This document shows, piece by piece, positions 5,765 through 47,420 of a stretch of 64,000 nt of DNA. The notes below the pieces were generated by a model. That model worked only from the letters and a program-made list of their open reading frames with translations. It ran no database searches and was not told where the DNA came from. Made by a program: the position numbers and the translations under genes. Source of the stretch: Anastrepha obliqua (taxonomy: Eukaryota; Arthropoda; Insecta; Diptera; Tephritidae); contig NC_072895.1 in NCBI RefSeq assembly GCF_027943255.1, positions 23,844,001-23,908,000 of the forward strand, given 5' to 3'. Position 1 is the first letter of the stretch. Each line of letters begins with the position of its first letter.

Positions 5765-5770
5765 ATATGC

Positions 5771-14489: not shown

Positions 14490-14522
14490 AATGCGCTAGA
14501 GGCTTCAAACTGCGAATATAGC

Positions 14523-16690: not shown

Positions 16691-17015
16691 ATAAAACCAA
16701 ATCTGCTGCATGGTCAGTTTCGAATGTTTGCATATGCATGTGTGCGTATTTTTTGCTGTTTTTTGTGAATATTTTACAATGTAAAATTTGTTGAGCGCTG
16801 CCTATAAAAACTATTATTATATTATTTTTAGTTAGTCGCGCAGAAAATACAATTATAGATTTCAAGCAATTAGTGCAGAATATGAGAACATAATTAACTG
16901 GGTTTTTTTATTCCTTGATTAATGAACAGCTTCATTTAAAGTCAATTAAACTAGCGCTGTCACTGACAGATGTTAAGTCGCACGCTAATTAACGGCTGGG
17001 TAGGACTTGCAACCA

Positions 17016-17023
17016 CATAAATA
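17016..17023 (+). promoter_or_regulatory. TATA-like box of IR-B
   Basis: CATAAATA lies 60 bp before the IR-B start codon and is kept upstream of IR-B' (minus strand, near 41,691). Distance fits a start site near 17,045 and a short leader. Evidence is positional only. In the right arm a LINE fragment separates this box from the IR-B' coding start. Confidence 0.35.
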
Positions 17024-17075
17024 TTACCCCAAAAACTGACATCTTAATTAGTTCTGAAATATTCGGCTACAAGAA

Positions 17076-18908: not shown

Positions 18909-19033
18909 GGATGAGAGAAAAGTTGAGTTGCAATTTGATTCATGTGAGTGAGGGAGTTGGCCATTGAAATTCATTTGAGAGATAAGGTAAATATTGTGAG
19001 TATTTCTATTACGTAAATACATCTACAAATATT

Positions 19034-19039
19034 AATAAA
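19034..19039 (+). terminator. Poly(A) signal candidate of IR-B
   Basis: AATAAA lies about 125 nt after the distal TAA stop of IR-B. It is the first good hexamer downstream, assigned by position only. Confidence 0.35.
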
Positions 19040-19639
19040 TGAGAATACAAAAATTTAATATTTCCATTTTAGGCAAACTACTACTTTTATTCAATTCTAC
19101 GATTTAGCCACAATCGCTTACTTAGAAGAGTTCGGACGAAGTAGAACTTTATTTACCCGGCTTGCTTCTTATTTTCTAAAATTTCATTGTGACGTTAATA
19201 CTTATGAGAAATTTTAAAGTAGTTTCTTTGTTAGTTACATAAATGTCATATTTTTGGTGTGTGGTTTTCATGTATCTAAAAAAAAAACTACCCAATTTGC
19301 TTCATATTTGCATAGGCGACAAGAAAGGAATGAAATTCTGAATGGGAGCCAATTGATTCGGTAATTTTTACTTTTAAGATTTATGCTCTAAAATAGTTTA
19401 CTTTACTTAACGAAGCAACTTTGAGGTTCTTCAAAAAAAATGTTTTTTTTCTTAACATAAAAAATATCTTTTTCCCCCTAAAAGTGGCAGTCAACAAATT
19501 TGTCATAATATTTGCTTTATGTATTTTCTAAGAAACATATTTGAGAAAAAAATAAAAACAAGCTCCTTGTATCCCATTAAAATTATATGTGTGAAGGTTT
19601 ATAAGTATGTGGGTTTGGCAGGATTAAAAATATGTCACT

Positions 19640-21180
19640 TTTAAGATAGTCCCCACCTGTTAAAAAATTGAATTAAATTAATAAATTCAATCAAATATTG
19701 CAAAGCAGGTGTCTAACGAAAAATGGTTTTAATTTCAAAAATATTTTTGTAGAGGGTTGCCACTTGTTTGAAAATTAAATTCAATAAAAAGTAATAAAAT
19801 AAACTGGATAACAGTATGGGAGGTTTGAAACAAGGAAGGAGGTTTGAAAAATCGTAACTTAGTATATATTTTTGGAAAGGTTGCCACCTGTTCAAAGTTT
19901 TAATTTGGTCAAATATTACAATGCAGGTGTCTGATGAAAAAAAGTATTAATTTCTCAAATAGTTTTGTAGAGGGTTGCCATTTGTTTGAAAATTAATCTC
20001 TGTTAAATCTTTGAATTATAGTGAATTAATAAGTTCAATCAAATATAAAAATACAGGTGTCTAGGGAAAAAAGTTTTAATTTCGAAAATAATTTGTAGAG
20101 GGTTGCCACTTGCTTGTATGATACCTGTTAAACAAGTTTAAATAAAGTAAAAGTTTCAATCGAATATTACAACGCAGGTGTGTAGGGAAAAAAGTTTTTA
20201 GTTCGAAAATATTTTTGGAGAGGGTTGCCACTTGCTTGAAAAATTAAGTACTTGTAAAAAAAGTGAATTAATAAGTTCAGTCTTATGAAATAAAGTTTAA
20301 TTTCAAAAATACTTTTGTAGAGGGTTGCCACTTGAAAATTTAAGTACTTATTAAAAAGTTTATTTATTGTAAACAAATAAGTGCACTCAAATATTGCAAT
20401 ACAGGTAAACAAAGATTTAGTTTCGACTTTATTTGCCGCCTGTTTAAAAAATTAAGCACCTATTAAAAAAGTTTGAGTAAATTTATAAGTTGAATCGAGT
20501 ATTACAATACAGGTAAGCAAAGGTTTAATTTCGCAAATATACGCCACCACTTCTTTGTATCTGTTAAAAAATTTTAATTAAATTAATAAGTTCAATCAAA
20601 TATTACAGTGCAGGTGTCCGATGAAAAAAGGTTTAATTACGAAAACATGTTTTTAGAGCGTTGCCACTTGTTGGAAAATGTAAGTACTTGTTAAAAATTT
20701 AATTTCAGAAAGTGAATAAGTTAAATCAGATATTAAAATGCAAGTGCCCAATGAAAAATGTTTATTTTCCAAAATATTTCTGTAGAGCGTTGCCACTTGT
20801 TTGTACCTGTGAAAAAAGTCAAATTAAATTAATAAGTTCAACCAAATATTGAAACACAGGTAAACAAAGGATTAATTGCGATAGTATTTTTGAGAGAGTT
20901 GCCACCTGTTTCCTAAATTAAATTCAGTAAAAAGTAACAAAATAAGCCGAATATAATAATGGGGGTATCAAATCTTAACATATAACATATTCTCGATTAG
21001 GCTGCCACCTGTTTAAAGCTTAAATTCAATAAATAAATGATTAAAACAATTCAGTATCGGTGTCAATTGCAAGAAATGTAAGAAAGCTTACTCCAGCAAA
21101 TATTTTTGCAGACGGTTGCCACCTGTTTAAAATTGTTGTTATTTCAATATTATGAAGATATTTTTGAATAGTGTTGCCGT
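19640..21180. repeat. Degenerate ~110 bp minisatellite (left arm)
   Basis: About 14 diverged units of 95-130 bp share a GGTTGCCACYTGTTT box (near 19,755, 19,877, 20,100, 20,224, 20,324, 20,658, 20,788, 20,897, 21,000 and 21,115). Each unit also has a TAATAAGTTCAATCAAATAT segment and a GCAGGTGTCT segment. No coding potential is seen. The array separates the 3' ends of IR-B and IR-C and is mirrored in the right arm. Confidence 0.85.
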
Positions 21181-21640
21181 CTCTTAAAAACTAGATTCAT
21201 TAAAACGAGCATACGAATGAATACTATTCGGAGATGCTCAAAAGTTTTCCTTGTATTATGTATAAAAAATGGCATTACAATAATGTGTGTATGTATGTAT
21301 GGTATGTATACGGAGCAATTACGAAGTTGCCATATTCACTCATAGCCATTTGAACATTTAGTCATTACAAAAGGCAAAAGCGTAAAATTAAACTGTTTTT
21401 TTTTCTATTCTTCTTGAAGAATAAATCTCAAAATTATAAATTTTTATTTAATTATTTTCAGTTTACTCTTTATTATTCTTATTTTTTTTTCACACTCAAG
21501 CCTACAAATAAACCGAATTCTCAGAAAAATTTACGGTAATGTGTAAAATACTTGGATCACTTGAATCGCTCTGCTTTAAAGAGATTAGTTTTGAAAGTTC
21601 ATAATTTAAGTGAAGTCTTCTTTCAACATTGATTAGTAAT

Positions 21641-21646
21641 TTTATT
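21641..21646 (-). terminator. Poly(A) signal candidate of IR-C
   Basis: A minus-strand AATAAA stands about 20 nt after the IR-C stop. It is retained after IR-C' (33,260-33,265), just before the mariner insertion. Confidence 0.4.
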
Positions 21647-21666
21647 TTTATAACAAATATTATTCA

Positions 21667-23583
21667 TCACACAATATTTCCCATATTACTAAATTTATTT
21701 CTCCAATTCAAACGTTCTGCAATTTGATTCCATAGCAGTGCCAAGTATTGTTGACCGTCACGCTTGAGCTTCTGATTCAAACTTTCCACCAGAATGCAAA
21801 AGCAACTAGTGGCAATACACGAAATATAGATCCACCAAATGTAATACAGATCGCGCAATTGTAGCGCTTTATCACCGAGTGGTTCTACAAAATCTTCCAG
21901 GCTGAGCTTTCCCGCCTCGACCATTTCGAATAGGCTCATCGCTGTCCAATGATTCCAGAAACCATACGCCTGCATATCCAACAAATAGGCATTGAACGAA
22001 GCGCGATAAACGCTATTTTCGGCCAAGGGTACCGCCAATAAAGTCTGCCGATGAAACTGCACCTCCTCTGAGACACGAAATAGGCGTTGTGACAAGTGAA
22101 GTTGCTGGCGTGCAACCATTGCCCAGATTTCCGAATGAGTCGAGTAGGCGAATCGTGTGTTAAGACTCTTACGTAGCGCATAGAAATCACGCAACTCGGG
22201 TATCATGAGGAAAATGTCTCTGTAGGTACGCATGAAGGCCTTGGACATGAACTTTTCCAGCAACTCAAATTCCTCCAGAGGTATAGCAATTTGTATGTCA
22301 CGCATCTTGAGATCGTCGTAAGTGTTGATTTGTTCACCGGATGGCGGACGACTAAAGAAACCATTGAGTTGCGCGCAATAAACGGTACTCCAAATGATAC
22401 CCTGCAGAAAGATTAGAAAGTAGAGCAGATAAAATTTGTAGTTGCGTTCTTTACGCAATTGAAAGGAGAGTCCAATGACGCCACGAAATATTTTATCGTT
22501 GAAGAACAACTCCTTGTAAGGAAACTTGCCGGGCCTGCGCACACTATGAGCTTCATTGGTAATCCAAATGTAGAGTAGAGAGAAAATAATAAAAATTACT
22601 ACATCTATTATGGAAGTATTTCTACTCAAGATGTGTTTGTAGATTTCACAGCGTTCGATGTAGCCGCTGCGTGGCAGCATAGGCATCCAATTGCTGATCT
22701 CCACTATGTGTGAGAGCCCATGCAGCGACGTATTTTCTACGGGAATTTGCAAACAAATCGGTAAATCCAACTCGTAAGCACCGGTAAGGTTTGCTAAGAT
22801 CGAGGTTTCAATGCTGGCGCCCGCATTCAAACGCATCTTATAAGTGAGACTGGCATTAAGCTGCGCAGCATAGGTCGCAATGAGATGATACACGTAACCG
22901 GAACTACGCTTTCGGCCTTGATGGTCTGTGTAGACAATAGAGCCCGGTTCCGATTGCGAAGCCATGGTGCGCAGCTCATAACCATGCAGATTTTTGAGAC
23001 GATGTGGGTAGTACAAACTCGGCCACTGAGCTTCGTCCATGGTGAAGTTAGGGAAGCGGGTGAATGTGTAGAAAAGTCCGGTTGTTGCGAAATCCTTACG
23101 TATAGCCAAAACATTCAACATTTGTTGCTGATCGCAGTAGCTGAAAAGTTTCCGCATATACTCTTGCTGCGAAGTAGTAAAATTTTTTAGCAGGAACAAA
23201 ACCCTCGTTTCACGCATATGGCGCAAGCTGTCGCTCATCTTTTCAAGCAGCCAAAGGTCGACAAAATCGTCAAGACACACAAGCGTTAAAAGCTCGCGAC
23301 TGTAATGCGCATTTAAGTAGATCGAGTGGCTGCCGTTGAAGATGAGTTTTGCGGTGCTGCAGTTGGAGAGTTCAGCAAAGCAATCCGTTGATTTACGGCG
23401 CCACAGCACCATTGTGCTAAAGTTTTGCTCATTTTGAATGGATGTGAGCAGTATTTCCAGCGGGTTGGATTGAGTTGTATTTGCTTGGGTGATAAGCTGA
23501 TGAATGCTCACTGATGCACTGGTGCGCACAAAAATCACATAGAAGCCGATTTGAAGAATTCCGAATAATGTTGAAACGCACAT
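21667..23583 (-). CDS. Divergent ionotropic receptor IR-C (638 aa)
   Basis: This intact single-exon IR differs clearly from A and B but has the same plan. A hydrophobic signal segment spans about 5-20, an N-terminal region with several N-glycosylation sites follows, S1 is about 200-305, TM1 323-343, the pore loop 362-376 (NDKIFRGVIGLSFQ), TM2 384-405 followed by AQLNGFFSRPPSG, S2 about 415-570 and TM3 581-600. The NDKIFRG/NENIFRG pore motif and the PL-AENS block near 520 are shared with IR-B, so B and C are sister genes relative to A/D. Only its 3' half is duplicated in the right arm. The 5' half and its flank (22,571-24,027) are single-copy here. Confidence 0.9.
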   Translation of the reverse strand: MCVSTLFGILQIGFYVIFVRTSASVSIHQLITQANTTQSNPLEILLTSIQNEQNFSTMVLWRRKSTDCFAELSNCSTAKLIFNGSHSIYLNAHYSRELLTLVCLDDFVDLWLLEKMSDSLRHMRETRVLFLLKNFTTSQQEYMRKLFSYCDQQQMLNVLAIRKDFATTGLFYTFTRFPNFTMDEAQWPSLYYPHRLKNLHGYELRTMASQSEPGSIVYTDHQGRKRSSGYVYHLIATYAAQLNASLTYKMRLNAGASIETSILANLTGAYELDLPICLQIPVENTSLHGLSHIVEISNWMPMLPRSGYIERCEIYKHILSRNTSIIDVVIFIIFSLLYIWITNEAHSVRRPGKFPYKELFFNDKIFRGVIGLSFQLRKERNYKFYLLYFLIFLQGIIWSTVYCAQLNGFFSRPPSGEQINTYDDLKMRDIQIAIPLEEFELLEKFMSKAFMRTYRDIFLMIPELRDFYALRKSLNTRFAYSTHSEIWAMVARQQLHLSQRLFRVSEEVQFHRQTLLAVPLAENSVYRASFNAYLLDMQAYGFWNHWTAMSLFEMVEAGKLSLEDFVEPLGDKALQLRDLYYIWWIYISCIATSCFCILVESLNQKLKRDGQQYLALLWNQIAERLNWRNKFSNMGNIV

Positions 23584-24027
23584 TTTGTAGCAAATACATC
23601 AAACTGACTGCTTCTAGTCTTCAATGAAGGAGACTGCCAACGGCACGAGCAGCGCATATTGTACTAGAGAAGCAATTTTATTTTAAAATTTATTGGGTTA
23701 CGGTAATAAAATTATATTGACGTAATTTTTTAGTCATGCGAGCGTAAAACAGGTGAATATTTGTATGCACCTAAGAAGAGCAAACAAAACTCTATGGGCA
23801 AATTTGTATCAGAAAGCATGTCACGCACTTCAAATATAGGAACGACATTCAATTCAGCAACTGAATTCAGTGCTGATTCGTAAGCCTTAAAAAAGAGTTA
23901 ATTATCATTGAGGTCTAACAGCTAGAAATGCAAACTAAAAGCTATAAAAGTGGCTGCGTTGTGGGTCAGGAACCAATCATTGCCATCAGGTCAAGCAGCC
24001 ATAAAATCTCTACGGCGCAATAATAAA

Positions 24028-24955
24028 GGGTATTCCAATAAGAGGTGTTATTTTGGTAAAAGATCAATGGTTTCGTTGCTTGTGTGGCACGTAGCACCGT
24101 CTTATTGAAAATAAACGTGGTCCAGATCAATTCCATCCAATTCCGGCCATAAAAAATCGTTAAGGATCTCTTGCAAGCGCCATCCAGTCACCGTAACTGT
24201 TGCTCCATCTTCATTCTCGAAAAACTAGGGTCCAATGACTCCGCCGGACCAACCGCACCACACAGTCACACGTTGAGGATAGAGAGGCTTTCCAACAATA
24301 ACTCTTGCATTTTCTGAGCCCCAGACCCGACAATTTTGCTTGCTGACGAATCCACCGAGGTGAAAATGGGCCTCATCACTCAAGATAATTTTTCGATGGA
24401 ATTCCGGATCATTTTCATGCATTTTAACGACCCAATCAGCAAAGACACGACGTTGTTGATGATCGGCCGGCTTGAGTTCTAGTATTAACTGGACTTTATG
24501 AGACTTAAGACCCAAATCTTTATGCAAAATACGGGGGGTGTAATGACGTTTGTGGAATGCCTAATTCCAAAGAACGACGAGGAATGGACAAACCTCGGTT
24601 TTCTTCAACACTTTCGGCTACAATAGCAATATTTTCGGCTGTTCTTGAGCGACGTGCACGGGTTTATTCTTCACATCACTAACTTGTCCCAACAGCTCGA
24701 ATTTTTTCACCAATTTTTGTATTGCGGTCCGACAAGGTGCTTCACGATGACTCAAAAATGTTCGTCTCTGCCAAAATTTTACCATTTTTAAAGTGAATTT
24801 TAATAATTTCAATGCGTTGTTTAAGCGTGTATCGTTCCATTTTTATTAATGACGTAGTTTCTACTTGTCAAATATCAAAAAATGACAGCTACAAAGGGGA
24901 CATCAACCGAAATAGCGGGCTATACAAAATAACACCTGTTCTTGGAAAACCCTTT
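24028..24955 (-). mobile_element. Tc1/mariner-type transposon relic
   Basis: Imperfect TIRs bound it: GGGTATTCCAATAAGAGGTG at the left and CACCTGTTCTTGGAAAACCC at the right. On the minus strand, 24,618-24,812 encodes an N-terminal helix-turn-helix region and 24,225-24,527 encodes the first catalytic region (ILSDEAHFHLGGF, VTVWCGWSGG). The second Asp region (DGATCHTSNET) lies near 24,070-24,100, but the rest of the 3' catalytic part is missing and stops interrupt the frame. Relatedness to the DD41D group is suggested by the SDEAHFHL block. Confidence 0.7.
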
Positions 24956-25495
24956 ACTTTCTCCAAAGTCGCAACTGAATGTGGAGCCATTCTAAATGAG
25001 CTGGCAAAGCTGTCACTGTCTGCGTTCCTGGCCATACAGACGTTCCTGGAACTTGCAAAACAGACGAGTTGATAAGGAGGGCAACTAATCTTACATCAGT
25101 CAAATCTGTCCAGTACGCGAGCAGCTTTTTATCTTCAAGCAAGCTCAAGAACACAAGATGTACCGCGGAGTCTACATGAAAGGTTTCTATACAGGTTTGG
25201 CCTACAATGAATGAAGAAAGAACAAACATAGATCCCACTGGCCAATCAACAGAGACAGTCTGCCTTCCATTTGTACCACAGTTGTTGCTACCACCGGCCA
25301 CTGCCTAATGGGAATACACGGAAAGCGTATGGGGGTTCCCTCTACTGAATTTTGACTCAACCGCAGAAGATTATCAAACTTAATTGTTAGTAAGTCAGAG
25401 ACTAATTACAAATATATTTTATGAGTAAAAATTTATCACATTGCCCAATTTTCCCTTCAATAGAATTGAAGTGATATAAAGATCGATCAGATTGG
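24956..25495. other. Non-coding stretch, no gene recognised
   Basis: A minus-strand open frame (24,954-25,301, 115 codons) crosses this stretch, but I recognise no domain in it and it overlaps the transposon edge. It may be part of another LINE or LTR relic. Nothing else is seen. Confidence 0.3.
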
Positions 25496-26560
25496 AGGTA
25501 CTTCTTCTAATAGGGGCTTTTTGACAGATTACGCGTAACTACTGTCAAACTAAATACATACTTTTTTTCAGTTTCATTGACACTTCATCATGGAAAGACG
25601 TGCCTCTCAACAACGTTTACATATCGTAAAATTGTATTACGAAAATCGACGCTCTGTGGAAAGCGTTTATTGCGAGCTCAGACTAACTTATTTTTGGATG
25701 ATTCTTGATCGATTAGTCCACGTACAGCCCGAAGTGAAGAGAATATTGCGGCTGAAAATAAGAGTTTTGCCGAAGACCCGGAAGAATCGATTCGGCGCTG
25801 ATCTCAACCCCTTGGGCTATCTTATGGCTTTACTTGGGTGATTTTACGCAAAGATTTCGGTTTGAAAGCATAACAAATACAGCTAATCCAAGATTTGAAG
25901 CCGGCCGTTCTTACAAAGCGTCATAATTTCCAACCTTGGCCTCTTGAATAACTCGCCGAACATACGTCATTTTTCGTTTAAAGGCTACGTCAATAAGCAG
26001 ACTTGCCCTATTTGGGCTGAAGAGCAACCCCAAGCCGTTCAAGAACATCCATTGAAAATAACCATTTGGTGCGTGCCTCATGCCTATGGGCTGGAGGAAT
26101 CATCGTTCCATATTTCTGCAAAGACGGGACTGGCGCCAATGTAACAGTTGATGGCGAACGCTGTCGCGTTGTGGAAAACGACTTTTGATGCCGAAAATTA
26201 CCCTTGATCAGCCCATGATCTCCAAATTTGGTGGCAACAACACGGCGGACGGCGCTATTTGCCATACAGCCAGCGAAACAATGGATTTACTGCGTCGTCG
26301 TTTCGGTGAGCAATTTATCTCTCATCACGGACCAGAGAATTGGCCACATCACACCTTTGGACTTTTATTTGTGGGAGTGTGCAAGGTCTAAATGCTTTGT
26401 GGATAAACCAGCTTCGATTGAGGCATTGCAAGTCAACATTGCTAAAGTTATTCACGAGATACCGACCGAAGTCCTCCAGCGAGTCATGCAAATTTGGTGT
26501 TTACGAATGGCGCAGTTGCGGTCAGCATTTGAATGGGATTATCTTTAAAAAATAAATGTC
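25496..26560 (+). pseudogene. Tc1/mariner-type transposase relic
   Basis: The plus strand opens with MERRASQQRLHIVKLYYENR, a typical N-terminal helix-turn-helix. Broken frames follow with FKGYVNKQTCPIWAEEQPQ, DGAICHTASETMDLLRRRFG and TPLDFYLWECARSKCFVDKP. These are the first to third catalytic regions of a DD41D-like element in the right order. Frameshifts near 25,840 and 26,370 and loss of the first DE block show it is inactive. Left end near GGTACTTCTTCTAATAGGGG; the right end is not certain. Confidence 0.65.
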
Positions 26561-27100
26561 ACGAAAGTAATAAAAATTGCCAAATTAATTTGAATTTTCG
26601 TTGATTTATTTCAATTTTAAATCCGATACCTCTAAATTGATATATTTTAATTGGCAATAACCCACAGAATTTCGACTTATATATCGTCCACTTAGATCTA
26701 AAATTTCTACTGCCCGATTACCAATTTGAGATCGAGTTTAGGCCATTCCGAATTATATTTAGAAAAAAGATTGCGCCCATCAGGGAGTGCGTGACGTCAT
26801 ACTAGCCTAGTTGTGCAGTGTTGCCACCCTTTTTAATAAATGAGAAAATTTTTGAGTTTGGTGTTTGTTTCTTTTTTTTTTAGTTTAGAGCTACCAAAAT
26901 TGTAAGTAAAAAGAAATAAATATAAAAAAGGCTAAAAAATTCAGGTTCTTATAAATTTTAATGTTTGAAAGTGCAAATCTCATTTTTTTCCTTTGAGGTT
27001 ATACAAGAAAATTGATCTAATTCTCTCAACTCTTCTTAATATTTAAGACCTGTTTATACATTTTAAAATCCTTTGAATTTACTTAATACGAATTAGGCCA
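26561..27100. other. Non-coding stretch, no gene recognised
   Basis: AT-rich sequence between two transposon relics, with no similarity I can name and no long open frame. Confidence 0.4.
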
Positions 27101-28170
27101 TGGGGCGACACCTCTCTCCGCCGGCAAGTGAACAGAGGCAATCCGCAAGGCGGTGTTCTCTCGCCACTACTCTGGATTGCTGTACTTAACGGTCTGCTGT
27201 AGGAGCTGGAGAGGAGGGGCTGTAAGGTGATTGCCTATGCGGATGACGTGGAACTTATTGTCAGAGGCCAGTTTCTAGATACTCTGATGGAACTGATACA
27301 GGCATCCTTAAACATTTTCAGTTCATCCCCATGGTGCTGGATCACTGTGCACTCACGCTAGGTCCGAGCGGACCGCTTTCTACTCATATTCCCTCAAGGT
27401 ATGAGTGGGCGGGGTGCAACATTTGGCGGCAAGGCGTGGCAAACATGTTCATGGATGGCTCGAAGTTGGACGGAAGACTTGGTGGGAGATTATTCTGTAA
27501 GGAGCTTCCCATAAAACTTAAATTCAGGTTTCCGGAGTACTGTAGTGTTTTCCAAGCGGAGGTATCTGCAATTAAGGAAGCAGTGGACTGGTTGCTTACC
27601 TCGGTAACTACCGTTAAAGAAGTAAATATTTACTCTGATAGCCAAGCGGCAATTAGGGCCTTGGGCTCGTTGTTTGTGCGTTCGAGATTGGTCGGGGAAT
27701 GTCTGGTTTCTCTCTCGATTGCATCCGAATACTTCGACATTAGGCTCATTTGGGTTCCCGGTCACAGCGCCATAGAGGGAAACTGCTGGGCTGATGAGCT
27801 GGCTAGACAGGGAACTTTGGAGACGGTTTCGTCGCGAAATGAGATTGGCCTACAGTCTACTTAGCGCGCACTGGGTTAGTGTGCAAACGTGCAAGGTCGC
27901 GAGATCCTTCTGGCCGCGGGTAGATCGGGGACGGCCGAGGGAATTCCTAAGGCTAACCAAGCCCCAGCTCTCGAATTTGGCGGGTATCCTTACCGGACAT
28001 TGTCCGTTAGGTGTTCATGCAGTGAGAGTTGAGATTGCCTCAAGTACTTGTCCTGTCTTAAGGACGAGGTGGAATCATTTCAACACCTTCTTCTCAGCTC
28101 CCGTGCTCTCGTCTGGCAAAGATTTAGACATCTGGGCTCTCATTTTTTCGCCACGCCTTCGGATATAGCG
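27101..28170 (+). pseudogene. LINE fragment: reverse transcriptase end plus RNase H
   Basis: The first part gives GGVLSPLLWIAVLNGLL and the YADDVELIV active site of a reverse transcriptase (27,150-27,260). After an internal deletion of the thumb, 27,331-27,864 encodes an RNase H domain with the expected acidic residues: FMDGSKLDG (D), AEVSAIKEAVDW (E), IYSDSQAAI (D) and VPGHSAIEGNCWADELAR (H, D). A frameshift leads to a C-terminal GHCPLGVHAVR tail. LINEs of the I/R1/Loa group carry such an RNase H. It is a dead fragment. Confidence 0.75.
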
Positions 28171-28940
28171 GGTCTAAATATCATAAATTTAGTGAAGTTC
28201 ATCAATAGCTTGTTGCGGCTAACGTAAATCAGCCACCGTTGGCGTCGTCGTAAAATGCATGGTCATCATCAAAATCATAAAGTGCCAAATCAGGGCTATA
28301 CCAGCACAGGGTTCGTATACGCTGGCAAATATTTAAGTATCTGCTCCACCAATCTGAAATCGTCTACATATTTTATGAAACTAACCTGGACCAAAACTGC
28401 TAAATTTTATAGACGTGGTTGAAGTTTTGTTCAAAGTTTTGAAGTTTCCAGCTCATCGAAAAGTTCTTTAAAAATTGATTGACCAGTTCCTTACTAAAAA
28501 TAGTAGGAAAATTCGCCCGAAAATCTATTTTTTTAAAAACTTTATTCGGCAAATTTTTTTCCCATTTTTTTTATTCATATAGAAATTCTAACATTAATAA
28601 ACAAAAAAATTTTTGGTCTTTTGTATTTAGGTCACGGACACCGATGCTACAACGTCTGCCGATTGAGAAGCCCCGCTGCGACCTTCCTGGAAGAATTGAG
28701 TGTACATCCGCTCTTTTAAATGATTAAAATAAAAATAATAATTTTTATATTATTTTAATACTTATATAGAAAAACTGTATACCATTGAAAAAAATATACT
28801 GACTTCCTCATTTTAAATAATTTTAATGAAAATCAGGGAAAATATGGCCGTTTACGGGTATCTGTCCCCTTGAACAAGAAAGCGAACTGATGTAAATAAG
28901 GCTTCGCTCTTAAACAAGCCCTTTGTGTAAGTTTTTACTT
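28171..28940. other. Non-coding stretch upstream of IR-D
   Basis: No coding unit or RNA is recognised. Homology to the 5' flank of IR-A' starts only at about 28,940. Confidence 0.4.
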
Positions 28941-29303
28941 CCGCTCCAATCCACATGAACGCTTAATGAAATTTCTAATTTGCCCTTCATAAGACTCATC
29001 AATCAGTTAGTGCTTCAACCCATTCATCAACACCCAAATAAATACTCAAGCCAATAAAATTTTTGATTGATTGAAAATATTTCCTTTCATCGCATATTTG
29101 AGAACACTTTAATTACGATCATTTTCAGCCTGATAAAATCTATCACAACTGTAATTTTCTGTAGGCACAAGTACTTCCGCTTATTGACATACGAGAAATT
29201 AATGCTCCCAATTTTTTTATGAATCTCAAAAGCAAATACAGTCTTCTTTTCAAAACAGTCGTTTAAGGATTTTTAAATAGTGCAGTCACGAGCCCGCAGC
29301 AAA
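28941..29303 (+). promoter_or_regulatory. IR-D 5' flank conserved with IR-A and IR-A'
   Basis: From ATGAACGCTTAATGAAATTT (near 28,955) to the start codon this flank aligns with 44,097-44,444 and the mirror region of IR-A, with many small changes. Blocks kept in all three include TTTGCCCTTCATAAGACTCA and AATTACGATCATTTTC. A CAGTC at 29,256-29,260, 48 nt before the ATG, is a candidate initiator. Confidence 0.4.
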
Positions 29304-31202
29304 ATGTTGCTTATTTACAGTGCAATGCTATTTCTCATCTCTCCGCTGTTGATGGCTCATTTATCAATCAACTGGAGCCCCGCAAATACTTTGAGCATAA
29401 ACATCAGCCAAATTATAAACAAAATTAAGTCGGAGCGAGAAATCTACTCATTTCTCATTATCAACGCCTACGGTTCAAGTGAGAGTTGTCTTTGTGACGA
29501 TTCCATCCGAACGCTCAGCGCTTATGGCACTGTTAGGCTACTGCAAGCAAACAGCTCTTGCTCACACTCGCCCAGCGACTACAATGATGAGATTCTATTG
29601 ATTCGTTGTTTACCGAATAAATTTGTGTCGGATTCATTAGAGGCGATGGTCGCTTGTCTCAAAAACAAACGCCATATCCGCATTCTCTTCATCTGGAACA
29701 CCGAGTACAAGACTGAATTGATAAAAAATCGTGAAGATCTTCAAAAACAGCAACAACTACTTTTCGAATATTGTGCCCAAATACGTTTATTGAACGTGAT
29801 CAGTATTTACAGAGACTATGTGGACTATGGTCACTTCTATACTTTTAGCTACTTTCCTCAGTTCCATCTTCAACGTAAAGCAATGAAGGGGGATTGTTTT
29901 CCCGATCACATTAAAGACATGAAGGGTGTCGCCATACGTTCTTTAGCCGACGGTCTTGAACCATGGATTATTGTGTGGCGCGACCGATTTGGTCATATTC
30001 AGGTTACTGGTATTGTGGCAAAACTTTTGCGTGAATTCGCTAAGCGAAACAATGGTACACTAACCTATCCGTCAATTGATAATTTGACGCAAGTACTTTG
30101 GGAACCGTTATTTGAGAATGATACTATCGACATAGTGACTGGAATTGCAATTTCAAACTTAAAGACAGCTGGTTTGGATCTGTCGACACCTTTAGTGTCA
30201 ACTGATTGGATTATGATGCTGCCTTTACCTCCCCTGGTACCTGACAGCGAAGTACTTTTATTTCTACTCAATTCTGTGTTGGGAGTGCTTCTCCTCTTTC
30301 TCTTATTCGTGTTTTCATTTGTTCTTACATTGGAAAGTTTACTTTGGCGGCGACGTTCTAAAGCAGACAGTTTACTGTTCTTCATTTGGATACTCACCAA
30401 TGTTGTGCTTCGTAGTGTAATTGGACAGTCATCGTGCTCCGTTGTTCACGTTAAGGCGAAATTCACAAAACTTTTTATTTACATTTGTCTGTTGCTCAGT
30501 GGCATTTTCGTGAGCACATTTATTGCAGCTGGTCTTAAATCGTATTTAACCAGCAATCCACATAAGTACTCCCGGTTAACAACGTTCGAGGAGTTTATAA
30601 ATTCAGAAATAAAAATTAAAGAAAGTGAAAGACTATTTAGTAGTCTGGCTTTTTTTATCGATCCGAAATATGCTAAAAGTTTAGACACCAAATTCATAAT
30701 TGAACCATCGTTCGAGCAACTGCAACAGCAGCGTTCCTCTTTGGATACACGATTTGGTTATACAGTAGTCGATCCACTATGGACGGCAATGTCAAGACAT
30801 CAATCGTATTTACCACGACCACTCTTCTATGTGAGCGAAAAAATCTATGTGATAAAAAATCTTCTACTGTCAATACCTTTGCAAGAGCACTCCATTTATA
30901 AGGAAGCGATCAACAATATGATCCATCAGGCACAAAGTGTAGGACTAACTGATTTGTGGATCCGTCAGACCTATGATGACTTGTTGGCGGCGAAAAAAAT
31001 TAATAGAACTATAGTGAAGCTCGTTGAATATGAACCATTGGATTTGACACATTTCTACTGCTTGTGGTGGATGTATGGCTTTGGCGTGAGCTTATCCGTT
31101 TTGATATTTTGCACCGAGGTTTGGTATTACAAAAGAACACAAAAGAAGGCTGTGAGTGAGCAGAGGAGATTGAAGAGGAGAGTTCGAAAAGTTAGGAAAT
31201 GA
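29304..31202 (+). CDS. Divergent ionotropic receptor IR-D (632 aa)
   Basis: An intact single-exon paralogue of IR-A. It has a signal peptide (1-18), S1 at about 205-310, TM1 about 318-348, pore loop about 358-380 (FFIWILTNVVLRSVIGQS), TM2 about 390-413, S2 and TM3 near 585-608, and a basic tail. Identity to A/A' is high but clearly lower than A to A', with changes spread over the whole length, so D is an older duplicate. The frame is open upstream to 29,280 through a GTG, but ATG at 29,304 matches the start of IR-A and heads a clean signal peptide. The frame has no lesion, so the gene is probably functional. Confidence 0.9.
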   Translation: MLLIYSAMLFLISPLLMAHLSINWSPANTLSINISQIINKIKSEREIYSFLIINAYGSSESCLCDDSIRTLSAYGTVRLLQANSSCSHSPSDYNDEILLIRCLPNKFVSDSLEAMVACLKNKRHIRILFIWNTEYKTELIKNREDLQKQQQLLFEYCAQIRLLNVISIYRDYVDYGHFYTFSYFPQFHLQRKAMKGDCFPDHIKDMKGVAIRSLADGLEPWIIVWRDRFGHIQVTGIVAKLLREFAKRNNGTLTYPSIDNLTQVLWEPLFENDTIDIVTGIAISNLKTAGLDLSTPLVSTDWIMMLPLPPLVPDSEVLLFLLNSVLGVLLLFLLFVFSFVLTLESLLWRRRSKADSLLFFIWILTNVVLRSVIGQSSCSVVHVKAKFTKLFIYICLLLSGIFVSTFIAAGLKSYLTSNPHKYSRLTTFEEFINSEIKIKESERLFSSLAFFIDPKYAKSLDTKFIIEPSFEQLQQQRSSLDTRFGYTVVDPLWTAMSRHQSYLPRPLFYVSEKIYVIKNLLLSIPLQEHSIYKEAINNMIHQAQSVGLTDLWIRQTYDDLLAAKKINRTIVKLVEYEPLDLTHFYCLWWMYGFGVSLSVLIFCTEVWYYKRTQKKAVSEQRRLKRRVRKVRK

Positions 31203-32300
31203 CTTTGTAGTTAGATGTAACCTTCGTCATGTCAAAGTGGATATTCACTCATAAGGGAAATGTTCAATTGAACAGCAACAGTAAATAAAGACAGTATCTC
31301 TCATATTTATATGCACGGTATACCTAATTTCAAAGCACTGTAATTCAATGTTTGTAAGTAAAATTGTTGTAGAATCTACTAAACAAAATAAAAAAATGCA
31401 AATAGAAATGAGTGAAAATAATTTACTATAAAATATTGGGCTTCCATGTACATCATGGGAGCGAGGGGAGTATATATACGGACTGCATAGACATATATAC
31501 ATTGTATAGACATATTTTGTTTACATATAAAATTAGCATATTCATCTTCTATTAGATGTTGTAACAAATTTCTACTCCCATTGGTGCTGTGCCGCCTCCG
31601 AACAATGCCTGATCTGGCATCATGCAACTATTAGAGCCTCATGAAAGGACAGAAGGCATTTGGTATACTAAAGAAACTTATTTAGACAGGTCCTTGATAG
31701 TTCGTTCAATAAATTGGAAAAGCATTCCACTTTGTTTAACGAAGCAGAGGGCGAATAGCAAATAAAAATAATTGAAAAAAAAGAATTGCCTGTATTTTTC
31801 TATGTTTAGCTATTTGAAAAAGGGGGTATTTGATGTAGTAATAAGAAATTAAACGTTTGGTAAATGACACTTTGCGGCACCGAAATATATTTCGGGAGGG
31901 ATGTTACAATACATTTTTTATAATCGATTTTCATCAAATCGAATAACACAAGAAATTAAATATGACAAACACCTCCAAAACCTTGCCTTATAGTTATTAA
32001 AAAAAAAATCGGATTATCGCACCTTTGCGTACTTAAAGCCCTATAACTTAGTTGATTATCAACCGCTTCATCAAAATGTCCAATAAAAAAAATTAATTCT
32101 GGGAATGCAGTTTCATAGCTCATTCATAGCTCATTCAATACTAGGATAGATTAGTTTTGGTTGAGTGGCTGTCATTTGACGAACTTAGGCTTGAATACAG
32201 TAATTCCATTGTGACACCATTAAAGCGCGCCCTTTACACTCCTGAGTCTTCTCTGAATTTTCTTACTAAGCTAAGCTTCTAAGTTTAAGCATTTAAGAAA
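31203..32300 (+). repeat. IR-D downstream block, repeated after IR-A' and at left edge of R1
   Basis: The 3' flank of IR-D aligns with the 3' flank of IR-A' (46,347-47,410), and its distal part (32,095-32,290) also with 830-1,060. IR-A shares only the first ~430 bp. AATAAA at 31,284-31,289 is the likely poly(A) signal of IR-D. No gene is seen inside. The block ends near TAAGTTTAAGCATTTAAG, where the truncated IR-C' begins. Confidence 0.7.
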
Positions 32301-32315
32301 AAACTCTCCACTTGG

Positions 32316-33224
32316 ATTACCAATGAAGCTCATAGTGTGCGCAGGCCCGGCAAGTTTTCTTACAACGAGGTGTTCTTCAACGATAAAATATTTCGTGGCG
32401 TCATTGGACTCTCCTTTCAACTGCGTAAAGAACGCAACTACAAATTTTATCTGCTCTACTTTCTAATCTTTCTGCAGGGTATCATTTGGAGTACCGTTTA
32501 TAGCGCGCAACTCAATGGTTTCTTTAGTCGTCCACCATCCGGTGAACAAACCAACACTTACGACGATCTCAAGATGCGTGGCATACAAATTGCTATACCT
32601 CTGGAGGAATTTGAGTTGCTGGAAAAGTTCATGGCCTTCAAGCGTACCTACAACAAGGCCTTCATGCGTACCTACAGAGACATTTTCCTCATCATACCCG
32701 AGTTGCGTGATTTCTATGCGCTACGTAAGAGTCTTAACACACAATTCGCCTACTCGACCCATTCGGAAATCTGGGCAATGGTTGCACGCCAGCAACTTCA
32801 CTTCTTACAACGCCTATTTCGTGTCTCAGAGGAGGTGCAGTTTCATCGGCAGACTTTATTGGCGGTACCCTTGGCCGAAAACAGCGTTTATCGCGCTTCG
32901 TTCAATGCCTATTTGTTGGATATGCAGGCGTACGGTTTCTGGAACCATTGGACAGCGATGAGCCTATTCGAAATGGTCGAGGCGGGGAAGCTCAGCCTGG
33001 AAGATTTTGTAGAACCACTCGGTTATAAAGCGCTACCATTTCGCGATCTGTATTACATTTGGTGGATCTATATTTTAGGTATTGCCACTAGTTGCTTTTG
33101 CATTCTGGTGGAAGTTTTGCATCAGAAGCTCAAGCGTGACGGTCAACAATACTTGGCACCGCTTTGGAACCAAATTGAAGAACGTTTGAATTGGAGATAT
33201 AAATTTAGTAATTTTAGAAAGTGA
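32316..33224 (+). pseudogene. IR-C' : 5'-truncated copy of IR-C
   Basis: Similarity to IR-C starts abruptly at the codon for W340 at the end of TM1 (WITNEAHS) and runs to the stop. The copy keeps the pore loop, TM2, S2 and TM3 but has no signal peptide, N-terminal region, S1 or TM1, so it cannot be a working receptor. The retained 295+ codons are fully open. It has an 18 bp in-frame insertion after KFM (AFKRTYN in place of S), which repeats the adjacent KAFMRTYRD coding sequence. The join marks the inner breakpoint of the inverted duplication. Confidence 0.85.
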
Positions 33225-33320
33225 AATTTTGCTATATTTATAAACTTATTTGTTATAAAAATAAAATTGCTAATCGATGTTGAAATAAGACTTTACATAA
33301 ATTATGAACTTTTAAAACTA

Positions 33321-42031: not shown

Positions 42032-43080
42032 TTATGGTATCATAGAGTTAAGAGTCACAACTTTAGGCGAGAGACCCCATCTCTTTCCAATAGCGCCCTT
42101 CCTTCCATACAAAACGGCTGTTGCCTTCCTTATCTTTTCCTCAATGTTGGACTTCCATGTAAGTCTTCTGTCAAGGATTAAACCCAGGTATTTCACCTTG
42201 TCAGAAAGCACCAACGGAGCGCCCCTATTGAAGGGAGTAGATGTCTGGATATTTTATATTTCCTGATAAATAAGATGAGTTCCATCTTGAGAGGATTTAC
42301 CGACAAGCCGCAGTCTGCGTTTAGATATACCTGTATCATATCTTAAAGAGTATTCACACACTTGCCTCTATCAATTAGTGCCGCATCATCCGCATAAGCA
42401 ATCAAGCTGTAACCCCTTCTCCGAAACCATTCAGCAAGTCATTGACAAAGACAACCCAGAGATCGGGTGAGAGAACACTGCCCTGCAGAGTGCCCTTATT
42501 TACCTGCCGGCGGAAAGAGATGTCACCCCACTCTGCTGCAGTCATTCAGTCGCTAGGCACTCGGTAGATGAACCTCGGCTCCGATCCCCAGTTTATGCAG
42601 AGACTTAGTGATTGCCTCAAGAAGCCCCCTAGGATTTTCGCCTCTTATGTGCATGTCAATCAGTATGTCAAACGGTTTTAGCAAGAAAGATGAAATACTG
42701 ATTGGTCTGAAATCCTTAGGGAAGACTTGTGAGCTCCTGCCTTCCTTGGGTATGAAGACATGTGGCGGTTTTACCCTCCACAATCTTGGTATATAGCCCC
42801 TGGCTACGCAGCTCGCTTTCTCAGAAGCTTCTTTAAGAGTTCCTCTTAGCCTTCTTAATTTCGGACTAAGAGGATCCTAGCTCTATTTTATAAAGCTTCC
42901 ATCCTGAGAGAGTCTCAATTCTTTTAGCCCAAGTAAATGGGCGTCGGCACGAAACCCTAAGTTTAAAGAGCTCAGTTGTCTACCAGGGTGGTTTTTCCGT
43001 CTTAGCGTTCTAAAAGAAGAGGAGGAGGAGGAACACAAGGTAAAAATCTCCACTAGCCCGTCGATCACTCCCACCGTAAT
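42032..43080 (-). pseudogene. Non-LTR reverse-transcriptase relic (right arm)
   Basis: Mirror copy of the relic at 15,460-16,690. Minus-strand frames read VKYLGLILDRRLTWKSNIEE (42,200), then a broken palm region and, near 42,950-43,050, the LSSLNLGFRADAHLLGLKEL pre-RT block. Extra lesions differ from those in the left arm, so both copies decayed independently after duplication. Confidence 0.6.
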
Positions 43081-43569
43081 TTAGATTTCCATCGGTGCTT
43101 CGGAGAGAGTTCTCCACATACGGAGTGGCTGATTACAAAATGTTAGCGCAGCCCGCGGGTTATCAGGATTGATACTAGTAAGATCCTGATTATGACATAC
43201 TGGATTTGAAGCGGCTCGAACAGTGTAGCTCTGTAATATGAGAAAGCTGCTCAGCCCTATTCAAACCTGGTAGCGCGTAGTCTTTGGTGACTACGTAGGT
43301 TGAGTTGAGATGACTCCCCATAAGTTTCGGTATGAAATCTGGCTCTGAACACTGGACATAATGAACAAAACTAAATAAAACCACAAAAAACAACACGAAA
43401 TGATAAGCAATGTAAGCTAACTGAATACCGAAGCTGAAGAAGCCTTTACTCTTGTAGCAGTACCTCTTGCAGCAGGTCAATGCCGTACAAACAGAATGAC
43501 AATTCATTCGAGTAATGAGCTCGATGACATAGTGGGGACACTAAGATCCCGTCTCGACATCGACGTTAC

Positions 43570-43930
43570 CTAACAGCCACAGCAGAAAGCGACACCAAAC
43601 TCGGATAAAGGCGCTCCGGCCCGTCTGGCAATGACCCCAAATCCCGGCACGCTATTCGAACTGGTGGAGCGTCTAAGAAAGGCAATCGACGGGCTACTTT
43701 CATATGTCAAACCGCGAGAAAATGTCCAAGGCCATATTAGAAGAATGTGGAGTATAATAAAATGCGCACACGCTGACATGACTATGCAATTCAAAGCCGA
43801 AAATCGAAGGGTCAGGCTGATATCGACCCCGGTGTGTATAAAAGTAGCATTCCCTAAATATTTATATGGAATGTTTATGTTACTGAAACAAAAACAACAA
43901 CAAAAAATTAGTGTAAAATTAGTGTAAAAT
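43570..43930 (+). pseudogene. LINE ORF1-like remnant (right arm)
   Basis: The plus strand reads ELVERLRKAIDGLLSYVKPR followed by HIRRMWSIIK, resembling a LINE ORF1 segment. The mirror of 14,523-14,940. The frame is open for 98 codons but has no complete domain. The intervening 43,081-43,569 shows no recognisable coding unit. Confidence 0.35.
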
Positions 43931-44028
43931 TGAAATCGCCTACATCTTTTTGAAGACTCGATGAACCTAAATATATAATTGAAACTCCGTCTTGAGCTAT
44001 ATTCGAAGTTTGAAGCCTCTAGCGCATC

Positions 44029-45014
44029 GGCAAGTTGCTACTTAAATCTATTTAAGTGCTCACTAATGGCAATCGAATCACGTCAGCTCTACTCTACATG
44101 AACGCTTAATGAAATTTCTAATTTGCCCTTCATAAGACTCATCAATCAGTGACTGCTTCAAGCCATTCATCAACACCCAAATAAATACTCAAGCCAATAA
44201 AATTCTTGGTTGATTGAAAATGTTTCCTTCCGTAACATATTTGACGACACTTCAATTACGATCATTTTCCGCATGATAAAATCTTGCACAACGGTAATTT
44301 TATATACATAGATTCTGGCATTTTAGGTCATTCACATATTAGCTACTAATGTTCCTGCTTTCGGATTTCGGTAGTAAAATTATATGAACAAGCAAAACAG
44401 TCTTAGCAGCCTTCTTAAAGAGTAAAGTACGAGTCTGCGGCAAAATGTTGCTAATAAGCAGTGCAATACTTCTCCTCAACTCTCCACTGTCGGTGGCTCA
44501 CTTCTCAAGCAACTGGCACCTCGCAAACACTTCGAGCATCAACATCAGCCAAATTATAAACAAAATTCAAGTGGAGCGAGAAATCTACTCATTTCTCATT
44601 ATCAACGCCCACGACTCAAGTCAGAGTTGTCTTTGTGACGATTCCATTCGAATTCTCAGCGCTTATGGCACTGTTAGGCTACTGCAAGCAAACAGCTCTT
44701 GCTCGCACACGCCCAGCCACTCCAATGATAAAATCCTAGTGATTCGTTGTTTACCGAATAGATTTGTGTCGGATTCATTGGAGGCGATGGTCGGTTGTCT
44801 CAAAAATAAACGCAATATCCGCATTCTCTTCATCTGGGATACCGAGTACAAGACTGAATGGATAAAAAACCGTGAAGAACTTCAACAACAGCAACAACTA
44901 CTTTTCGAATACTGCGCCCAAATGCGCTTATTGAACGTGATCAGCATTTACAGAGACTACGTGGACGATGGACACTTCTATACTTTTAGCTACTTTCCTC
45001 AGTTCCATGTCCAA
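44029..45014. other. Arm-to-arm identity tract (right copy)
   Basis: Identical over 986 bp to the reverse complement of 13,504-14,489. It covers 416 bp upstream of IR-A' and codons 1-190. The first mismatches are at 44,028 and 45,015, with four substitutions within the next ~40 bp on the coding side. Confidence 0.8.
44398..44402 (+). promoter_or_regulatory. Candidate initiator of IR-A'
   Basis: CAGTC stands 47 nt before the ATG, with an AT-rich AAAATTATATG stretch about 15-20 nt upstream. The same spacing is kept in IR-A (14,116-14,120) and IR-D (29,256-29,260). Support is conservation and spacing only. Confidence 0.3.
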
Positions 45015-46346
45015 AGTAAAACAATGAAGGAGGATTGCTTTCCCGATCGCATCAGAGACATGAAGGGTGTCGCCATACGTTTTATTCCCGAGAGTGTTGA
45101 ACCATGGATTATTGTGTGGCGTGACCGGTTTGGTAATTTTCAGGTTACTGGGATTGTGGCAAAACTTTTGCGTGAATTCGCTAAACGAAACAATGGTACA
45201 CTAACCTATTCGGTGATTGATAATTTGACGCCAATACCAAATATGTTAGCGTTATTAGAGAATGATACTGCCGACATAGTGACTGGAATCGGAAGTTCAA
45301 GCTTAAAGACAGCTGGTGTTGATACTTCAGCACCTTTGCTGTCAATTGATTGGATTATTATGCTGCCTTTACCTCCCCTAGTACCCGACAGCGAAGTACT
45401 TTTATTTCTGCTCAATTCTGTGTTGGGACTATTTCTTCTGTTACTACTCCTCATCTTCTCATTCGTTCTTACATTGGAAGGTTTACTTTGGCGGCGACGT
45501 TCTCCAAAAAACAGTTTACGTTTCTTCATTTGGATATTCACCAATGTTGTGCTCCGTAGTATAATTGGTCAGCCCTCGTGCTCGGTCGTTCACCTTAAGG
45601 CGAAATTCACAAAACGTTTTATTTACATTTTTCTCTTGCTCAGTGGCATTTTCATGAGCACATTTATTGCAGCTGGTCTTAAATCGTATTTAACCAGCAA
45701 TCCACATAAGTACTCCCGTCTAACAACGTTCGAGGAGTTCATAAATTCAGAAATAAAAGTTAAAGCAAGTGAAAAACTATATCGCACTCTGGCTTTTTTT
45801 ATCAATCCGAAATACGTCGGAACCATGGAAAACAAATTCATAATTGAACCATCGCTCGAGCTACTGCAACATCAGCGTTCCTCTTTAGATACACGATTTG
45901 GTTATACACTAGGTGACCCATTGTGGAAGGCAATGTCAACACATCAGTCGTATTTACCGCGACCACTCTTCTATGTGAGCGAAAAAATCAATGTGATAAA
46001 AAATCTTCTACTGTCAATACCTTTGCAAGAGCACTCCATTTATAAGGAAGCGATCAACAATATGATCCATCAGGCACAAAGTGTAGGACTCACTGAGTTG
46101 TGGATCCGTCAGATCTATGATGACTTGCTGATGGCGAAAATAATTAATAGAACTATAGTGAAGCCCGCTGTATATGAACCATTGGACTTGGAACATTTCC
46201 ACTGGTTGTGGTGGATGTACGGCTTTGGCGTGAGCTTATCCGTTTTGGTATTTTGCGCCGAGGTTTGGTATTACAAAAGGACGCAAAAGAAGGCTGTAGG
46301 CGAGCTGAGGAGATTGAAGAGGAGAGTTCGAAACGGGAGGAAATGA
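44445..46346 (+). CDS. Divergent ionotropic receptor IR-A' (633 aa)
   Basis: Intact mirror copy of IR-A with the same plan: signal peptide 1-18, S1 about 205-310, TM1 318-348, pore loop 358-380, TM2 391-413, S2 425-575, TM3 585-608. The first 190 residues equal IR-A. About 28 residues differ afterwards, several matching IR-D instead (for example FIAAG for YITAG in TM2, AINN for ALNN, SVGL for SIGL). The promoter flank is identical to that of IR-A for 416 bp, so both may be expressed in the same cells. No lesion is seen. Confidence 0.9.
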   Translation: MLLISSAILLLNSPLSVAHFSSNWHLANTSSINISQIINKIQVEREIYSFLIINAHDSSQSCLCDDSIRILSAYGTVRLLQANSSCSHTPSHSNDKILVIRCLPNRFVSDSLEAMVGCLKNKRNIRILFIWDTEYKTEWIKNREELQQQQQLLFEYCAQMRLLNVISIYRDYVDDGHFYTFSYFPQFHVQSKTMKEDCFPDRIRDMKGVAIRFIPESVEPWIIVWRDRFGNFQVTGIVAKLLREFAKRNNGTLTYSVIDNLTPIPNMLALLENDTADIVTGIGSSSLKTAGVDTSAPLLSIDWIIMLPLPPLVPDSEVLLFLLNSVLGLFLLLLLLIFSFVLTLEGLLWRRRSPKNSLRFFIWIFTNVVLRSIIGQPSCSVVHLKAKFTKRFIYIFLLLSGIFMSTFIAAGLKSYLTSNPHKYSRLTTFEEFINSEIKVKASEKLYRTLAFFINPKYVGTMENKFIIEPSLELLQHQRSSLDTRFGYTLGDPLWKAMSTHQSYLPRPLFYVSEKINVIKNLLLSIPLQEHSIYKEAINNMIHQAQSVGLTELWIRQIYDDLLMAKIINRTIVKPAVYEPLDLEHFHWLWWMYGFGVSLSVLVFCAEVWYYKRTQKKAVGELRRLKRRVRNGRK

Positions 46347-46423
46347 CTTTAGAGTTAGATGTAACCTTCGTCATTTCAAAGTGGACATTCACTCATAAGG
46401 GAAATGTTCAATTGAACAGAAAC

Positions 46424-46433
46424 AATAAATAAA
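46424..46433 (+). terminator. Poly(A) signals of IR-A'
   Basis: Two overlapping AATAAA hexamers about 80 nt past the stop codon, mirrored after IR-A and partly after IR-D. Confidence 0.6.
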
Positions 46434-47420
46434 GACAGTATCTCTCATATTTATAAGGACGTTATACCTAATATCAATGCACTGTAATTCAATGTTTGTA
46501 AGTAAAATTGCTGTAGAATCTACTATGTATGCAAAATGTAGTAAACAAAATAAAAAAATGCAAATAGAAATGAGTGAAAATAATTTGCTATAAAATATTG
46601 GGCTTCCATGTACATCATGGGAGCGAGGTGAGTATATGTATGTATATACGGACCGCATATATGTATATGTATAGATCTGATCTGGCATCATGCAACTATT
46701 AGAGCCTCATGAAAGGACGGAAGGCATTCGTTATACTAAAGAAACTTATTTAGACAGGTCCTTGATAGTTCGTTCAATAAATTGGAAAAGTATTCCACTT
46801 TGTTTAACGAAGCAGAGGGCGAATAGCAAATAAAAATAATTGAAAAAAATAATTGCCTATATTTCCCTATGTTTAGCTACCATATTTGAAAAAGGAGGTG
46901 TTTGATGTAGTAATAAGAAATTAAGCGTTTGGTACATGACACTTTGCGGCACCGAAATATATTTCGGGAGTGATGTTACATTTTTTATAATCGATTTTCA
47001 TCAAATCGAATTACACAAGAAATTAAATATGACAAACACCTCCAAAACCTTGCCTTATAGTTATTAAAAAAAAAATCGGATTATCGCACCTTTGCGTACT
47101 TAAAGCCCTATAACTTAGTTGATTATCAACCGCTTCATCAAAATGTCCAATAAAAAAAATTAATTCTGGGTTGCAGTTTCATAGATCCTTCATAGCTCAT
47201 TCAATACTAGGATAGATTAGGATAGATTAGTTTTGGTTGAGTGGCCGTCATTTGACGCACTTAGGCTTGAATACAGTAATTCCATTGTGACACCACTAAA
47301 GCGCGCCCTTTACACTCCTGAGTCTTCTCTGAATCAACTTGTGGATTTAATAAACTTTCTTACTAAGCTAAGCTTCTAAGTTTAAGCATCTTTATAAAAT
47401 CTTAAATCTGTCAGAAATGA
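46434..47420 (+). repeat. IR-A' downstream block, repeated after IR-D
   Basis: Collinear with 31,290-32,295 downstream of IR-D, apart from an approximately 110 bp gap near 46,676 in this copy. Its distal part (47,160-47,420) also matches 830-1,080 at the left edge of R1. It links IR-A' to repeat R2 with no gene between. Confidence 0.7.

What the first reader, a model, noticed from the sequence alone, without database searches (positions are those of the whole stretch)
44029..45014. 986 bp of perfect identity inside otherwise diverged arms: likely gene conversion between IR-A and IR-A'
Positions 44,029-45,014 and the inverse of 13,504-14,489 match at every base I compared, covering the promoter flank and codons 1-190. 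Mismatches appear at once on both sides, and the remaining 443 codons carry about 28 amino-acid changes. A sharp, bounded identity island is the classic sign of arm-to-arm conversion. It would keep the promoter and N-terminal domain of the two receptors the same while ligand-binding S2 and pore parts diverge.
Basis: partly seen in the sequence, partly recalled or inferred. Interest (0 to 1): 0.8.

Follow-up and report, generated by a model that had tools for sequence, protein, structure and literature searches.

The report
Copied stretch between fly receptor genes
Two mirror-image copies of a probable chemical-sense receptor gene of a fruit fly share an exactly identical 986-base stretch, most likely because part of one gene was recently copied over the other; this is a clear case of a known process, in a large receptor cluster where such copying looks common.

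Summary
Gene conversion is well supported. The stretch is not conserved against six other copies, so constraint does not explain it (Fisher p 2e-7 to 5e-14). The two-arm story is too small, though. The window lies in Anastrepha obliqua, in a probable divergent ionotropic-receptor cluster; the tract matches at least 21 places over about 360 kb, exactly at three and at 99% at a fourth, A'1. A'1 shares both tract edges with A'2 but has seven other bases in the middle, six of them those of copy G. So order and direction stay open, leaning A to A'. A second exact tract (540 bp, window 43295-43834) joins A'2 to A1, the near-identical upstream counterpart of A, 94 kb away; A2 lacks it. The functional idea (promoter and N-terminus kept the same while S2 and pore diverge) is not supported: dN/dS is 0.42 and pair A-F shows the reverse pattern. 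Known kind, unusually clear example; reads were not checked.

The parts
44029..45014 (+). 986-bp identity tract in gene A'2: 416 bp upstream of the ATG plus codons 1-190
   Evidence: exact copies at C4:23857504-23858489 (-) and C4:23791205-23792190 (-)
13504..14489 (-). partner tract in gene A2
44270..44633 (+). middle of the tract (positions 241-604) where the counterpart copy A'1 differs from A1, A2 and A'2 at 7 sites; either the part most recently overwritten in A'2, or a G-like patch in A'1
43295..43834 (+). second exact tract, 540 bp, shared by A'2 and A1 (C4:23792371-23792910, -) but not by A2 (32 of 539 sites differ)
46032..46842 (+). 811 bp exact match between A'2 and A'1 (starting at C4:23823593), linking these two as counterparts
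44445..46346 (+). gene A'2, 633 aa, uninterrupted, probable divergent ionotropic receptor
12172..14073 (-). gene A2, 633 aa, uninterrupted
29280..31202 (+). gene C2, related copy (about 80% aa identity) used as outgroup
11876..15739 (-). left arm block, inverted match of 42815-46668 (93.4%)
42815..46668 (+). right arm block
9413..33320 (.). part of the window that is a tandem copy of C4 about 23787131-23810973 (99.3 and 99.2% in two blocks), unit spacing about 66 kb

Best explanation
The island is the footprint of recent ectopic (interlocus) gene conversion inside an expanded, probable ionotropic-receptor cluster of Anastrepha obliqua. A break in one copy was repaired from another copy of the gene, so that its promoter flank and first 190 codons became identical to the donor (the identity is shown; the repair mechanism is inferred). 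Two orders fit about equally. (1) A (A1 or A2, identical here) overwrote A'2 after A'1 and A'2 parted, on top of older exchanges that made the ends of the stretch alike in A'1. (2) One 986-bp event between A and the common forerunner of A'1 and A'2, followed by a G-like patch in A'1. In both I lean to A as donor (about 0.6). A further event, most simply A'2 to A1, made the neighbouring 540-bp tract after the unit was duplicated. No selective function is needed.
For: Exact tract with abrupt left edge. Not conserved: inside it A2 differs from F1 at 48/986 and from C2 at 170/974, while A2-A'2 is 0/986 inside and 47/1332 downstream; Fisher p 2e-7 to 5e-14 in six of six outgroup copies. GENECONV-like permutation on 7 copies: A2-A'2 run of 95 polymorphic sites, global p 0.0003, the smallest value that 3000 permutations allow. 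Downstream data reject the tract tree (AU p 8e-55); tract data reject the downstream tree by AU (0.024). A1 and A2 differ by 2 substitutions in 3180 aligned sites around the gene but by 32 in 539 at -734..-195, where A1 equals A'2 exactly. For A as donor: A' copies carry G's base at -1 and 1011, just outside the tract, where A carries F's base; inside, A'2 has A's base, which is also F's, at 275, 360, 369 and 604, where A'1 has G's.
Against: KH and SH (0.14) do not reject the downstream tree on tract data. Direction and order are open: A'1 equals A over 0-240 and 605-985 and shares both tract edges with A'2, which fits one older event; A'1 is identical to G1 and G2 over 288-470 (183 bp), and at 369 and 604 A's base is shared by F and C, so A'1 and G share the newer base, as a G-like patch in A'1 would give. 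Only at 542 is the base of A and A'2 absent from all other aligned copies. The left-edge agreement of A'1 with A'2 rests on sites -1 and -40; A'1 differs at -45 and -41 and lacks nine bases at -31..-23. The permutation treats sites as exchangeable; its 9-copy version with C2 is inflated at 278-359. One assembly, no reads, no population samples.
Confidence: 0.9

Rival explanations
1. Purifying selection on the promoter and N-terminal domain keeps the two copies the same.
For: The tract covers the promoter flank and part of a putative N-terminal domain (PF24061 weak match at residues 142-191).
Against: The same stretch differs freely from other copies (22/190 aa from A2 to F1, 20/190 to G1, 15/190 to the A. 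ludens protein P0002), and A2 and A'2 have no nucleotide difference at all in codons 1-190, synonymous sites included.
Confidence: 0.02
2. Assembly artefact: reads of one copy were collapsed or used to correct the other, or the upstream unit is a second haplotype placed in tandem.
For: Units 1 and 2 differ by only 11 of 17867 bp outside patches, low enough for alleles; no reads were available.
Against: No N in the 264 kb from C4:23644001 to the window end; A'1 kept 7 distinct sites in the same stretch; the right-hand parts of the two units match each other only in rearranged pieces; A1 carries a patch identical to A'2 that A2 lacks.
Confidence: 0.06
3. Recent duplication or crossing over rather than conversion made the identity.
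For: The cluster grows by duplication (66-kb tandem units).
Against: Homologous flanks on both sides of the tract are diverged (16/186 left, 47/1332 in the downstream coding part), so a double exchange limited to the tract would be needed.
Confidence: 0.02

Closest known systems
Interlocus gene conversion among Drosophila chemosensory paralogues, divergent IRs included (PMC4122928, passages read)
   Same: Conversion signals among chemoreceptor paralogues found with Sawyer's run-based program; the passages report high probability in 8 of 14 examined ortholog groups and two IR groups whose trees were possibly affected.
   Different: That paper calls the overall effect negligible for turnover rates and warns of false positives. 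Here the copies lie in inverted as well as direct orientation, the tract is exact over 986 bp, and a near-identical sister unit shows that one tract (540 bp) arose after the duplication.
Ectopic gene conversion between Drosophila duplicates such as Hsp70 and Amylase (review PMC3924832, passages read)
   Same: Homogenised stretches between paralogues in a fly.
   Different: A large multi-copy receptor cluster with mosaics of several copies.

Membership tests
Interlocus gene conversion tract | Identity island bounded by diverged homologous flanks on both sides | tested here: met
Interlocus gene conversion tract | Not explained by local constraint | tested here: met
   six of six outgroup copies
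Interlocus gene conversion tract | Conflicting trees inside and outside the tract | tested here: met
   AU rejects both ways; KH and SH reject only the tract tree on downstream data
Interlocus gene conversion tract | Non-reciprocal, with known donor | tested here: inconclusive
   leans A to A', not settled
Interlocus gene conversion tract | Present in reads and segregating or fixed in the population | not testable with these tools
   no reads or samples held
Divergent ionotropic receptor (IR) | Ligand-gated channel and IR ligand-binding domains | tested here: inconclusive
   A'2 matches PF24061 at E 0.01, below its cut-off; 13 of 17 aligned members match PF24061 and 5 of 17 Lig_chan at E up to 1; the neighbour E matches Lig_chan at 5.9e-5, below cut-off, and aligns to A2 at E 3e-34
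Divergent ionotropic receptor (IR) | Three-helix channel topology between two ligand-binding halves | tested here: inconclusive
   helices at 317-349, 354-374, 384-417 and 583-632 would fit, but mean pLDDT is 51

The most novel reading that the evidence does not exclude
The 540-bp and 986-bp tracts, 194 bp apart and between the same two loci (A1 and A'2, inverted, 94 kb apart), are the two halves of one two-sided repair event that altered both partners: a natural trace of a double-Holliday-junction intermediate between inverted paralogues. This needs the 986-bp tract to be as young as the 540-bp one and to run from A1 to A'2.
Probability: 0.06. Interest if true: 0.6.

Novelty: new member of a known kind. 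Interest (0 to 1): 0.4.

Why it matters
The cluster offers conversion tracts that can be ordered, because a tandem unit pair differs by only about 0.06% outside patches. It also warns that gene trees and orthology of these receptors in a fruit pest can mislead unless each gene is split into segments. Two searches of the held papers (Tephritidae, ionotropic receptor, gene conversion; divergent ionotropic receptors, concerted evolution) found no paper; subscription journals are mostly not held.

Tried and rejected
Structure prediction of A'2 from 17 sequences gave mean pLDDT 51 and was used only for rough topology; no fold search was run on it. PDB sequence searches with E and A'2 found nothing. 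The second protein search, with the alignment, returned the same 23 fly proteins as the first and no named receptor (in both only about 8000 candidates were scored). The 9-copy permutation with C2 was set aside because a stretch where C2 differs makes the other pairs look identical at 278-359. The first random-placement test mixed in secondary 66-68% matches and was repeated on the main blocks. GC content does not set the tract apart (0.37 and 0.44 inside, 0.39-0.44 around).

Constraint, plain duplication and even identity along the arms were considered and rejected; misassembly stays open at low probability. On checking this report I dropped an earlier claim of mine that A'1 proves a minimal 364-bp event from A to A'2: one search shows that a G-like patch in A'1 explains those sites as well. 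The odds of the one-event reading were lowered from 0.1 to 0.06 for that reason.

Full report
What is there. It covers 416 bp upstream of the ATG and codons 1-190 of two uninterrupted 633-aa genes, A2 (12172-14073, minus) and A'2 (44445-46346, plus). Codons 191-633 hold 47 nucleotide and 28 amino-acid differences. The island is far longer than chance: at most 266 identical columns in 20000 random placements over the 3908-column block.

Where it is. The window is G000:C4:23844001-23908000 of an 836-Mb assembly. C4 is 127,191,864 bases long, the contig length listed for A. obliqua proteins, and P0001 of A. obliqua matches A1 without a change over residues 1-600. So the species is Anastrepha obliqua. 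Passages of PMC10519418 name a public A. obliqua genome, GCA_027943255.1; that it is a long-read assembly is recalled, not read. The genes are probably divergent ionotropic receptors: Pfam evidence is weak but consistent; no match of the A genes passed a curated cut-off.

The wider cluster. The tract finds 21 places in the genome (a lower bound, as that tool states), all on C4 between 23.526 and 23.889 Mb: exact at three (the window's two and C4:23791205-23792190, called A1), 99% at C4:23821590 (A'1), the other 17 at 69-95%, several of them partial. I aligned 10 of the 21. Window 9413-33320 is a tandem copy of a stretch about 66 kb upstream; over 9413-28000, with the patch at 14550-15250 left out, the two differ at 11 of 17867 sites.

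Why conversion. If selection kept the stretch constant, it would be constant in other copies too. It is not: A2 differs there from F1 48/986, F2 49/986, G1 56/986, G2 57/986, C1 168/974 and C2 170/974; downstream the numbers are 55, 57, 118 and 109 of 1332 and 161 and 162 of 1329. A2 against A'2 is 0/986 and 47/1332. All six Fisher tests give p below 3e-7. A GENECONV-like permutation on seven copies lists A2-A'2 with global p 0.0003; 13 of the 21 pairs in that set reach global p below 0.05, so mosaicism looks general, though sites are treated as exchangeable, which flatters the test. Trees from the tract and from the downstream coding part conflict: the downstream data reject the tract tree strongly, the tract data reject the downstream tree by AU (0.024) but not by KH or SH (0.14).

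Order and direction. A'1 sits beside an inverted E gene as A'2 does and shares 811 exact bp with A'2 at the 3' end. It equals A'2, against A, at -40, -1, 986, 992, 1011 and 1055, so both edges of the tract are shared by A'1 and A'2; but it also differs from both at -45 and -41 and lacks -31..-23. Inside, it equals A over 0-240 and 605-985 and differs from A1, A2 and A'2 at seven sites: 241, 275, 287, 360, 369, 542, 604. Six of the seven carry G's base; 287 is private. At 542 all six F, G and C copies agree with A'1; at 241 all but F2 do. At 275, 360, 369 and 604 both F copies have A's base, and at 369 and 604 so do both C copies. A'1 is identical to G1 and G2 over 288-470 (183 bp), although over 241-604 it differs from G1 at 19 of 364 sites, against 24 for A2. 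Two orders therefore fit: a recent overwrite of A'2 by A with A'1 keeping an older, G-like A' state, or one older 986-bp event shared by both A' copies with a later G-like patch in A'1. I lean to A as donor in either case because the A' copies have G's base at -1 and 1011 just outside the tract, where A has F's; this is a lean, not a proof.

A second tract. A1 and A2 differ by 2 substitutions in 3180 aligned sites around the gene (indels left out) but by 32 in 539 at -734..-195 (Fisher p 3e-25); the differing part lies between the exact A1-A2 runs that end at -645 and begin at -216. A1 is identical to A'2 for exactly 540 bp there (window 43295-43834; C4:23792371-23792910). In 150-bp windows, A2's version of the differing part has no exact match among the copies in the fetched region. 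The simplest reading is one event from A'2 to A1, later than the tandem duplication. With the recalled Drosophila mutation rate (about 3e-9 per site and generation) the duplication is of the order of 100,000 generations old; this is only an order of magnitude.

Function. The 28 amino-acid changes fall 5 in residues 191-316, 6 in 317-417, 13 in 418-582 and 4 in 583-633 (list; borders from the low-confidence model). For codons 191-633 dN is 0.028 and dS 0.066, ratio 0.42, between A2 and A'2; between A2 and A'1 the ratio is higher, 0.021/0.027 or about 0.76, on 29 differences. Neither is a sign of positive selection, and no site test was run. At 26 of the 47 downstream differences A'2 has the base of both F copies, at 19 A2 has it; in 1405-1660 A'2 has it at 12 of 15, so part of the divergence may itself have come by exchange with F-like copies. 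In A2-F1 the N-terminus is the more diverged part (22/190 against 20/410). The tract also seems to stop inside the putative N-terminal domain (weak PF24061 match at residues 142-191 reaching profile position 164 of 193). Nothing found here indicates that conversion maintains a function.

Known or new. Interlocus conversion among Drosophila chemosensory paralogues, divergent IRs included, has been reported (PMC4122928, passages read), and conversion between fly duplicates is reviewed in PMC3924832 (passages read). PMC5144986 (passages read) considers it as an alternative for a recent triplication in D. suzukii. This is a new, very clear member of that kind.

Noticed in passing
33397-34428 (-): Uninterrupted 343-aa mariner-like transposase ORF (HTH_48 and Transposase_1) in the right arm region.
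   Followed up: no
40498-41634 (+): Reverse-transcriptase ORF (RVT_1) between E' and A'2; window 41665-42619 just after it matches 16102-17049 of the left arm.
   Followed up: no
38700-40446 (-): The E' receptor copy is frameshifted (two frames), while its partner E at 17076-18752 has a 558-aa open frame; F1 and F2 both stop at codon 621.
   Followed up: partly
7852-9413 and 56198-58122; 3444-3845 and 51475-52750: Long (ATAAAG)n arrays (259 and 321 copies) and TGTTA/GTTAT arrays (80 and 255 copies) lie in two blocks repeated in DIRECT orientation (pieces of 1117-9413 against 49133-57753), although the gene blocks between them are inverted.
   Followed up: no
28370-28590 and 32000-33320: Two further patches where unit 2 differs from the otherwise near-identical unit 1: 14 mismatches within 221 bp upstream of C2, and 47 mismatches over the second stretch. 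Possible further conversion tracts.
   Followed up: partly
32304-33212 (+): Partial copy of receptor B (C-terminal half, residues 337-633, about 90% identical).
   Followed up: no
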